A DNA stretch of 58,774 nt, from positions 1 to 58,774 of the forward strand of contig JAFTWQ010000016.1 in assembly GCA_017465225.1 (NCBI GenBank), given 5' to 3'. Positions 1 through 35,267 of this stretch are shown piece after piece. The DNA is from Bacteroidales bacterium. GTDB lineage: Bacteria; Bacteroidota; Bacteroidia; Bacteroidales; UBA932. Under the pieces are notes generated by a model. That model had not been told where the DNA came from and did not search any database. It saw only the letters and a program-made list of their open reading frames with translations. A program made the translations under genes and the position numbers. The first letter of the stretch is position 1. Each line of letters opens with the position of its first letter.

Positions 1-43
1 TCGCCTCCAGAAGCCTAGGCATCCGCCGTTCGCTCTTGTAACC
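1..43 (-). rRNA. rrl: 5' end of 23S rRNA gene (cut by window edge)
   Basis: Read on the minus strand, the first bases form the start of a bacterial 23S rRNA: a GGTTA start, then GCGAACGGCGGATGCC, then TAGGCTTCTGGAGGCGA. This matches the conserved ACGGTGGATGCCnnGGC...GAGGCGA block that opens 23S genes. The gene runs leftward out of the window, so only about 43 bases are present. The exact 5' end is estimated from the GGTTA. No 16S gene, tRNA-Ile or tRNA-Ala lies upstream; a 210-base leader, a promoter and then a protein gene follow instead (see Part 2). Identity rests on known 23S consensus. Confidence 0.82.
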
Positions 44-253
44 TTCTCTCTGAATGAATTTTCTTTGAATCACAAGCCAAATGCTTACACACTTGATCTC
101 ATTTCTCACTCGTTGCCTTGAAATTGCAGTCCACAACATTTCTAAATAGACTCTCTATCTCTCTTGTTACAGACTAATTAATTTCTTCTTCTATTACCTC
201 GTTATCTTTTCTCAAACTTGTCAATGAACTTCCGTTTTCTCTCAAACGGGCTG
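44..253 (-). other. Leader of the 23S transcript
   Basis: On the minus strand this stretch lies between a strong promoter and the 23S 5' end. It contains no open frame and no 16S or tRNA sequence. Close to the promoter it reads GTTCATTGACAAGTTTGAG, which resembles the TTCTTTGACA-type box found before 16S and 23S genes in Bacteroidota and thought to act in rRNA antitermination or processing. The rest is purine-rich. It is most likely the processed leader of a 23S-only transcript; the function of the box is inferred from position and resemblance. Confidence 0.55.
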
Positions 254-284
254 CAAAGATACGGACTTTTTTTTATCCTCCAAA
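254..284 (-). promoter_or_regulatory. Promoter of the 23S rRNA transcript
   Basis: On the minus strand a TATCTTTG (-7 box, complement of 254-261) is preceded by TTTG (-33 box, complement of 281-284) with a 19-base spacer. This is the full Bacteroidota sigma-ABfr consensus (TTTG, 19-21 bases, TAnnTTTG) and one of only three complete matches in the window; the others serve tRNA-Leu and the cysteine-rich lipoprotein. It points at the 23S gene about 210 bases away. The adjacent protein gene at 396-1034 reads in the same direction but ends upstream of it. Confidence 0.75.
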
Positions 285-395
285 TTTTTCTGCAATATTT
301 TTGCAAAAATTTTTAAACTTTTTTGAGCCCATTTTTACAAACACCTCATTTTCATACATTTACAAAAATCGGCATTTTTCAACATTTTTTCGCCA

Positions 396-1034
396 TCAAT
401 AATAATATGGGCGGAAATCTATATCGCAATAGTTTTTCTTTCCGAACGGATATTCCTCATCAATGGACAAATCATCATATCTGCTGAAATAGCAACGGAG
501 CCTGAAATTCTCCTGCGCCATATACTCCGTACCCATGACAAAGCACAGAGATGATATCAATGACTCATTATATCCTTTGTCCCAGAAATCAGATGTAAGA
601 TGGAAATGCCAGTCCACAGCACCATATCTGATATTGTCTGACGCCGGCTTGACGAAATCATCCTCCTCAAACAATTCAAGTATGCGCTCAAGGTCATATT
701 CAGGATCGACCTCGTGCCTGCGTTTCTCCCTCAATTCTTTCAGAAGGGCCGAATAATCTGCCTTGCTGTCATTGCCTGCACTGACCTTTACTATAAAAGG
801 CTCATCTCCATCAGCCAGATAAACGACAAGTTCAAAATCATCCGACTCCTTTGCGCGCTCATACCTCGCATCGAGATATTCCGTCAGGGAGCTGACAGCC
901 GTCATCTCCGAATGTGCTATATAGACAAAGCAAAGGGTCTTTTCAGAAACATCCCCGCCGGCATAAGCCCTCTGAGGCATCAGGGCAGCTGACATAAGCA
1001 GCGCCACCACTATATTATATATATATCTTTTCAT
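396..1034 (-). CDS. Secreted protein of unknown function
   Basis: A 212-residue protein that I do not recognise. It opens with a Sec signal peptide (MKRYIYNIV, a hydrophobic run, cleavage likely after AYA near residue 25), so it is exported. The mature part is rich in Asp, Glu and aromatic residues, has few cysteines and shows no known catalytic motif. It starts 12 bases after the end of the 525-residue gene at 1047-2624 on the same strand, so the two are probably one operon and may act together at the outer membrane. Its 3' end lies about 110 bases before the -33 box of the 23S promoter. Confidence 0.7.
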   Translation of the reverse strand: MKRYIYNIVVALLMSAALMPQRAYAGGDVSEKTLCFVYIAHSEMTAVSSLTEYLDARYERAKESDDFELVVYLADGDEPFIVKVSAGNDSKADYSALLKELREKRRHEVDPEYDLERILELFEEDDFVKPASDNIRYGAVDWHFHLTSDFWDKGYNESLISSLCFVMGTEYMAQENFRLRCYFSRYDDLSIDEEYPFGKKNYCDIDFRPYYY

Positions 1035-35179: not shown

Positions 35180-35184
35180 CTTCG

Positions 35185-35267
35185 TGCGGTGGGCGAGACT
35201 CGAACTCGCACAGGATTGCTCCCACTACCCCCTCAAAGTAGCGTGTCTACCATTTCACCACCACCGC
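35185..35267 (-). tRNA. tRNA-Leu (anticodon GAG)
   Basis: An 83-base tRNA on the minus strand. Acceptor GCGGTGG pairs with CCACCGC and the discriminator is A. The D arm contains TGAAATGGTAGACAC. The anticodon stem CTACT/GGTAG encloses TTGAGGG, giving anticodon GAG (reads CTC/CTT). A long variable arm (GGGAGCAATCCT) marks the type II structure of leucine tRNAs, and the T arm GCGAGTTCGAGTCTCGC is intact. CCA is not encoded (CGA follows), so the tRNA needs CCA addition. It has its own promoter and terminator. Confidence 0.97.

What the first reader, a model, noticed from the sequence alone, without database searches (positions are those of the whole stretch)
1..395. 23S rRNA gene with its own promoter and no 16S upstream
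The minus strand from 284 to 1 runs canonical promoter (TTTG, 19 bases, TATCTTTG), about 210 bases of leader with a TTCATTGACAA box, then the 23S 5' end. Directly upstream of the promoter lies a protein gene. In ordinary rrn operons 16S and tRNAs precede 23S. Unlinked rRNA genes are known in several phyla but are not the rule in Bacteroidales, so this would be a notable arrangement. A misjoin at the rRNA repeat is the main alternative, yet the promoter in the expected place argues against it.
Basis: partly seen in the sequence, partly recalled or inferred. Interest (0 to 1): 0.72.

Follow-up and report, generated by a model that had tools for sequence, protein, structure and literature searches.

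The report
23S rRNA unlinked from 16S
In this gut bacterium the large-ribosomal-RNA gene sits apart from the small one and appears to be switched on by its own promoter, and the same split recurs in its relatives, so methods that expect the two genes side by side would miss it.

Summary
Confirmed and extended. The contig starts 43 nt inside a 23S gene read on the minus strand; upstream lie a ~205-nt leader, a Bacteroidota-type promoter (254-284) and protein genes, and no 16S in 58.8 kb. A second contig of the same genome repeats this with 879 nt of 23S. It is not a misjoin: of 68 loci in 66 public assemblies none holds 16S, and 65 of 67 with enough DNA carry the promoter. Conversely, 82 of 90 fetched 16S 3' ends of the family have at least 1.5 kb downstream without 23S, in all 18 genera represented, mostly as 16S-tRNA-Ile-tRNA-Ala-terminator. 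Single-contig relatives are mixed (G160, G227) or linked (G153). In the mixed ones the unlinked 23S leader matches the linked spacer from a boxA-like element onward, with a promoter before it. Best reading: a split operon, 16S-Ile-Ala and (by relatives) 23S-5S, made by recombination at that element. Unlinked rRNA genes are known elsewhere; nine paper searches found none reported for this lineage. Whether linked copies persist in the window's genus is open.

The parts
1..43 (-). 5' end of 23S rRNA gene, cut by the contig end
   Evidence: same letters as the 23S start of G136:C65, which Rfam calls LSU over 891 nt
44..247 (-). 23S leader RNA (transcription start near 247 is inferred from the promoter)
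   Evidence: leaders of relatives listed
218..228 (-). boxA-like element TTCATTGACAA (the name boxA is recalled); similar elements stand in 23S leaders, 16S leaders and linked 16S-23S spacers of relatives
254..284 (-). promoter: -33 TTTG (281-284), 19-nt spacer, -7 TATCTTTG (254-261); consensus recalled
   Evidence: motif in 65 of 67 loci of relatives
232..289 (-). 58 nt identical to the promoter region of the 16S-type leader at the end of contig C63 of the same genome
396..1034 (-). protein gene (212 aa, no Pfam family) directly upstream of the 23S promoter, same direction; same neighbour in L134, L135, L149
1047..2624 (-). 525-aa protein gene, no Pfam family; next gene upstream, same order in L134, L135, L149
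2729..4711 (+). OPT-family oligopeptide transporter; found in the held DNA upstream of the 23S in 42 of 68 loci of relatives

Best explanation
The window carries the start of an autonomous 23S transcription unit (23S-5S by homology with complete relatives). It has its own Bacteroidota-type promoter and a leader with a boxA-like element. The 16S is made from a separate unit: promoter, 16S, tRNA-Ile, tRNA-Ala, intrinsic-terminator-like hairpin. SHOWN by sequence: both unit types exist, they are physically separate, promoter motifs precede them, and most 16S-Ile-Ala units end in a terminator-like hairpin. INFERRED: the 23S unit arose in a duplicated rrn operon by recombination between the boxA-like elements of the 16S leader and the 16S-23S spacer, removing 16S and tRNAs and placing an rRNA promoter before the 23S half; another copy kept only 16S-Ile-Ala. 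INFERRED: near-equal supply of the two rRNAs depends on matched promoters, which in this genome are identical over 58 nt between one 16S-type leader and one 23S leader. Whether linked copies also remain in this genus is left open (see first two rivals); it does not change this reading of the window.
For: Own genome: two 23S 5' ends (C15 = window; C42 with 879 nt LSU), both with promoter, box and non-rRNA sequence upstream and no 16S. Relatives: 68 loci of 66 assemblies, 0 with 16S, 65 of 67 with the exact promoter versus 0.3% of 1340 shuffles, 63 with at least 1.5 kb upstream, 42 with the OPT gene upstream. 16S side: 82 of 90 family loci unlinked, in 18 genera, 66 of them with Ile and Ala. Terminator-like hairpin (score >=10) after tRNA-Ala in 59 of 74 units versus 1 of 370 shuffles. 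G090 contig C8, window genus, holds 16S 3' end and 23S 5' end about 105 kb apart. Single-contig G227 and G160 each have one unlinked 16S and one unlinked 23S besides two linked operons. Breakpoint at the boxA-like element in both: unlinked leader and linked spacer identical at 118 of 118 and 164 of 172 aligned positions from the box to the 23S start, no longer aligning before it. 16S leader and trailer still pair in the unlinked 16S units of G160 and G227, and in G097 with leader and trailer taken from different contigs (0 to 1 of 200 shuffles as good). By eye, 5S and a terminator-like hairpin follow the unlinked 23S of G160 and G227 (printed).
Against: No transcript data. The window's own 23S is cut after 43 nt and its genome is a 78%-complete MAG with no full rRNA gene found; the genome searches are weak here, since one search also missed the 879-nt 23S piece on C42. 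In G097 (5 contigs) one 23S upstream junction and one 16S downstream junction are unassembled and could be a linked copy. Short-read MAGs should lose linked operons preferentially, so the unlinked share is inflated, and the pattern was built from this lineage's own junction. The recombination origin is inferred from two genomes of one sister genus. The closer promoter match within genomes (0.81 versus 0.75, 14 genomes) is not corrected for relatedness; in 8 of 14 another genome's 23S promoter matched better. The second 23S of the window's genome does not share the 58-nt stretch (longest exact match 11). 16S leader-trailer pairing was not above shuffles in G173 (76 of 200 as good).
Confidence: 0.93

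Rival explanations
1. Mixed state (compatible with the main reading of the window): the genome has unlinked 16S and 23S units and in addition one or more linked 16S-23S operons, as in G160 and G227.
For: G160 and G227 have two linked copies each; G153 has only linked copies. G097 has one unresolved pair of junctions. Linked copies would tend to be lost from short-read bins.
Against: 0 linked among 13 window-genus 16S loci and none in L061, L062, L063, L065. No contig with adjacent 16S and 23S matches among 55 genomes searched in the genus, 47 of which had any match. Both 23S starts found in the window's genome are unlinked.
Confidence: 0.4
2. Fully unlinked state (the other form of the main reading): every 16S and 23S copy of the window's genus is unlinked.
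For: As above: no linked copy seen in the genus, and two unlinked 23S starts in each of G000 and G136.
Against: No closed genome of the genus was available; G097 is unresolved; sister genera keep linked copies.
Confidence: 0.55
3. Assembly misjoin: the contig end joins unrelated sequence to a 23S repeat, and the real 23S follows a 16S.
For: The contig ends inside an rRNA gene, where assemblies often break.
Against: The 23S-promoter-ORF212-ORF525 order recurs in L134, L135 and L149. The promoter is present in 65 of 67 loci of relatives. Single-contig genomes show the same kind of unit.
Confidence: 0.02
4. The window's 23S is a stray, non-functional copy next to a chance promoter, while functional rRNA comes from elsewhere.
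For: Only 43 nt of this copy are visible.
Against: The promoter and leader recur across the genus; C42 (879 nt) and G136:C65 (891 nt) score as LSU; unlinked copies in G160 and G227 are full length.
Confidence: 0.03

Closest known systems
Unlinked rRNA genes of bacteria and archaea (Brewer et al. 2020, ISME J; not held, known through citations in PMC8178347 and PMC9045266)
   Same: 16S and 23S more than 1500 bp apart, separate transcription units; linked, mixed and unlinked genomes occur (passages of PMC8178347 and PMC7761764).
   Different: A gut Bacteroidales lineage. PMC8178347 (passages seen) cites that work as finding none in human gut, and mapped its own horse-gut unlinked reads to Cellulosilyticum or Anaerocolumna (Firmicutes).
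16S and 23S-5S units of Helicobacter pylori and Wolbachia (passages of PMC7761764)
   Same: 23S-5S transcribed apart from 16S, separate precursors.
   Different: Here 16S mostly keeps tRNA-Ile and tRNA-Ala and ends in an intrinsic-terminator-like hairpin; promoters are of Bacteroidota type and can be alike between the two units; some relatives keep linked copies. The tRNA arrangement of those two germs was not checked.
Ordinary Bacteroidales rrn operon (16S-Ile-Ala-23S-5S; seen outside the family)
   Same: Same genes and tRNA order.
   Different: Split after tRNA-Ala, 23S given its own promoter.

Membership tests
Unlinked rRNA genes (criterion quoted in PMC8178347: more than 1500 bp between 16S and 23S, or no 23S within 1500 bp after 16S) | No 23S within 1500 bp downstream of 16S | tested here: met
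   in relatives: 13 of 13 window-genus loci and 82 of 90 family loci; also L061, L062, L063, L065. The window's own genome gave no 16S 3' end to test
Unlinked rRNA genes | No 16S within 1500 bp upstream of 23S | tested here: met
   window contig 58.8 kb without 16S; C42 3.5 kb; 63 of 63 named loci with at least 1.5 kb upstream
Unlinked rRNA genes | Separate transcription units with their own promoters | tested here: met
   sequence motifs only: promoter before 23S in 65 of 67; promoter motifs before 16S in 23 genus genomes, from loci partly chosen by promoter similarity; terminator-like hairpin in 59 of 74
Unlinked rRNA genes | All copies unlinked in the genome | tested here: inconclusive
   both 23S starts seen in the window's genome are unlinked, but the genome is incomplete; sister genus mixed
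Unlinked rRNA genes | Separate transcripts observed in cells | not testable with these tools
   needs RNA data
Candidatus Cryptobacteroides (organism assignment) | Window genus equals this genus | tested here: inconclusive
   a Ca. Cryptobacteroides faecigallinarum contig (L129) has the same promoter-leader-23S arrangement, with the OPT gene 85% identical to the window's; no genome-wide comparison made; the GTDB family name UBA932 is recalled

The most novel reading that the evidence does not exclude
A whole gut family of Bacteroidales splits its rRNA operon by recombination at boxA-like elements, passing through a mixed state (linked operons without intact tRNAs plus separate 16S-Ile-Ala and 23S-5S units). 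The halves stay balanced because 16S and 23S promoters are repeatedly homogenised within each genome.
Probability: 0.35. Interest if true: 0.72.

Novelty: new member of a known kind. Interest (0 to 1): 0.57.

Why it matters
Unlinked rRNA genes have been tied to slow growth, reduced genomes and symbionts, and reported as not detected in human gut (passages of PMC9045266, PMC7761764, PMC8178347). Here they mark a diverse lineage assembled mostly from ruminant and horse guts (record titles). 16S-ITS-23S amplicon surveys would miss its unlinked copies. The family holds linked, mixed and unlinked arrangements, so how an operon breaks and how equal rRNA supply is kept becomes testable by comparison.

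Tried and rejected
Misjoin: rejected. Pseudogene: rejected. Rfam on the window alone finds no LSU because the stub is 43 nt. The whole-genome rRNA searches of the window's MAG gave nothing; one search missed the 879-nt 23S on C42 that Rfam finds when given the contig, so those zeros carry little weight. The genus-wide 16S search found 10 of 151 genomes. A protein-based scan with the neighbour gene found no relatives in genome contigs. A first motif matched no held locus; I take it that the box-to-23S distance varies. A loose terminator test was uninformative (68 of 74 versus 156 of 370 shuffles) and was replaced by a stricter score. 16S leader-trailer pairing failed in G173 (76 of 200 shuffles as good); G074 could not be tested because no 16S start was matched. 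Outside the family, 4 of 20 16S 3' ends lack 23S within 1.5 kb (L326 and L343 of G425, L333 of G374, L335 of G431); L335 shows no rRNA spacer or tRNA and may be a junction artefact. Of the 16 linked there, 4 are copies of one genome (G453), and L330 has the 16S end and tRNA order of another phylum. One linked family locus (L304) also has a different 16S end and tRNA order and may be a contaminant; it was counted as linked. One locus with 48 nt downstream (L267) was counted as undetermined. Of 91 places listed, 90 were fetched at length; the other (G328, L184) was checked with 1.5 kb and shows no 23S. Eleven unlinked family loci have no tRNA and several begin near a contig end, so they are weaker.

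Full report
What is there. The window is G000:C15:1-58774 of a 78%-complete, 90-contig MAG. On the minus strand it reads: protein gene (1034-396), promoter (TTTG at 284-281, 19 nt, TATCTTTG at 261-254), a ~205-nt leader with TTCATTGACAA at 228-218, and the first 43 nt of 23S, where the contig is cut. No 16S lies elsewhere in the window. Rfam does not score the 43-nt stub, but its letters match the 23S start of G136:C65, which scores as LSU over 891 nt. The promoter motif occurs once on that strand of 1-395; Markov simulations give it in 1.2% of cases.

The same genome has a second 23S. Contig C42 holds 879 nt of 23S with another promoter, the same box and leader, and no 16S in the 3.5 kb upstream. 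Contig C63 ends in a leader that resembles the 16S leaders of relatives, though the 16S itself is not on it. That leader shares 58 identical bases with window 289-232, the promoter region; with the C42 leader the longest exact match is 11.

Recurrence. Matches to window 1-400 were found in 138 of 151 genomes of the genus, 23S and 16S leaders together. A scan of genome contigs with a short 23S-start pattern gave 68 loci from 66 assemblies, mostly ruminant and some horse gut MAGs by title, and Ca. Cryptobacteroides faecigallinarum. None contains 16S by BLAST, and none has tRNA-Ile or tRNA-Ala in the 3 kb upstream; 67 have at least 350 bp upstream, 65 of these carry the exact promoter (0.3% of 1340 shuffles), and 63 have at least 1.5 kb. 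Of the two exceptions one is a base off in the -33 element; the other shows no box or promoter in the 330 nt printed, perhaps because of a long insert. The pattern came from this lineage's own junction, so the set does not sample linked operons fairly. The OPT gene is found upstream in 42 of 68, and L134 repeats the window's order of five genes. A misassembly would not do this.

The 16S side. Contigs with a 16S 3' end in the genus read 16S, tRNA-Ile, tRNA-Ala, hairpin and T-run, other sequence without 23S (L061, L062, L063, L065; G097 contig C5). A 16S 3'-end pattern in 199 genomes of the family matched 82 genomes in 18 of 25 genera. Of 90 places fetched, 82 have at least 1.5 kb downstream without 23S, 7 are linked, 1 is undetermined; unlinked loci occur in all 18 genera and in 79 genomes. 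Of the 82, 66 carry both Ile and Ala and 11 carry no tRNA. A strict terminator score is reached in 59 of 74 units with tRNA-Ala versus 1 of 370 shuffles. Outside the family, in 16 genomes of the order with matches (120 searched besides the window's, at a completeness floor of 97%), 16 of 20 loci are linked. Short-read MAGs should drop linked operons, so these shares are not frequencies of gene copies.

Physical separation. On G090 contig C8 (105,236 bases, window genus) a 23S start and a 16S 3' end sit at opposite ends on the same strand, about 105 kb apart. Single-contig G227 has an unlinked 16S ending at 1,120,830 and an unlinked 23S starting at 1,090,359 (30 kb); G160 has them at 430,518 and 539,750 (109 kb). 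Each also has two linked operons. Single-contig G153 showed only two linked operons. ARAGORN finds no tRNA in the linked spacers of all three. So the family holds linked, mixed and unlinked arrangements.

How it probably arose and works. In G227 the unlinked leader is identical to the linked spacer over 118 of 118 positions from the boxA-like element to the 23S start, and in G160 over 164 of 172 aligned positions. Before the element they no longer align, and in the unlinked copy a promoter stands there. 16S leaders carry a similar element after their promoter. Recombination between the two elements would delete 16S and tRNAs and leave promoter-box-23S. Processing seems kept within the 16S half: leader and trailer pair better than at least 199 of 200 shuffles in the unlinked units of G160 and G227, and in G097 with leader and trailer from different contigs, though not in G173. 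The 23S stem is weakly supported. By eye, 5S and a terminator-like hairpin follow the unlinked 23S of G160 and G227. Promoters of 16S and 23S are more alike within than between genomes (mean 0.81 versus 0.75, 0 of 20,000 permutations reach it, 14 genomes), but relatedness was not removed and in 8 of 14 another genome's 23S promoter matched better.

What stays open. In G097 one 23S upstream and one 16S downstream junction are missing and could be a linked copy. No transcript was seen. The organism name rests on one named contig and general similarity.

Known context. Unlinked rRNA genes are established (Brewer 2020, not held; passages of PMC8178347, PMC9045266 and PMC7761764 seen). PMC7761764 explored 15,898 genomes and reports 574 unlinked; its main text holds no word beginning 'Bacteroid', and its supplements were not seen. 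PMC8178347 says none were detected in human gut and mapped its horse-gut unlinked reads to two Firmicutes genera; two loci here come from records titled Horse_feces (L162, L168). Nine paper searches found no report for this lineage; of their hits I saw listings and, for PMC8178347, PMC9045266, PMC12603096 and PMC9723582, passages. Most subscription papers are not covered.

Noticed in passing
L216-L219 (G160, G227), between 16S and 23S: The linked spacers have no tRNA by ARAGORN but keep what looks like a degenerate tRNA remnant with a T-arm-like GGGTTCAAGTCCC; Ile and Ala tRNAs sit after the unlinked 16S.
   Followed up: partly
L279, L281, L283-L285, L287, L290, L291, L293, L296, L298: 16S 3' ends in three other genera of the family (g14, g15, g20) with neither 23S nor any tRNA in the 1.5 kb downstream.
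   Followed up: partly
L326, L343 (G425), L333 (G374): Outside the family, two other lineages of the order, one with a 1.2-Mb genome, have 16S with tRNA-Ile but no 23S within 1.5 kb: possible independent splits.
   Followed up: partly
window 44-247 and 23S leaders: A block like GGACTGCAATTTCA..GGCAACGAGT recurs in many 23S leaders of the genus, role unknown; seen by eye.
   Followed up: no
window 35184-35267: A single tRNA-Leu (GAG) gene, the only tRNA in the window.
   Followed up: no
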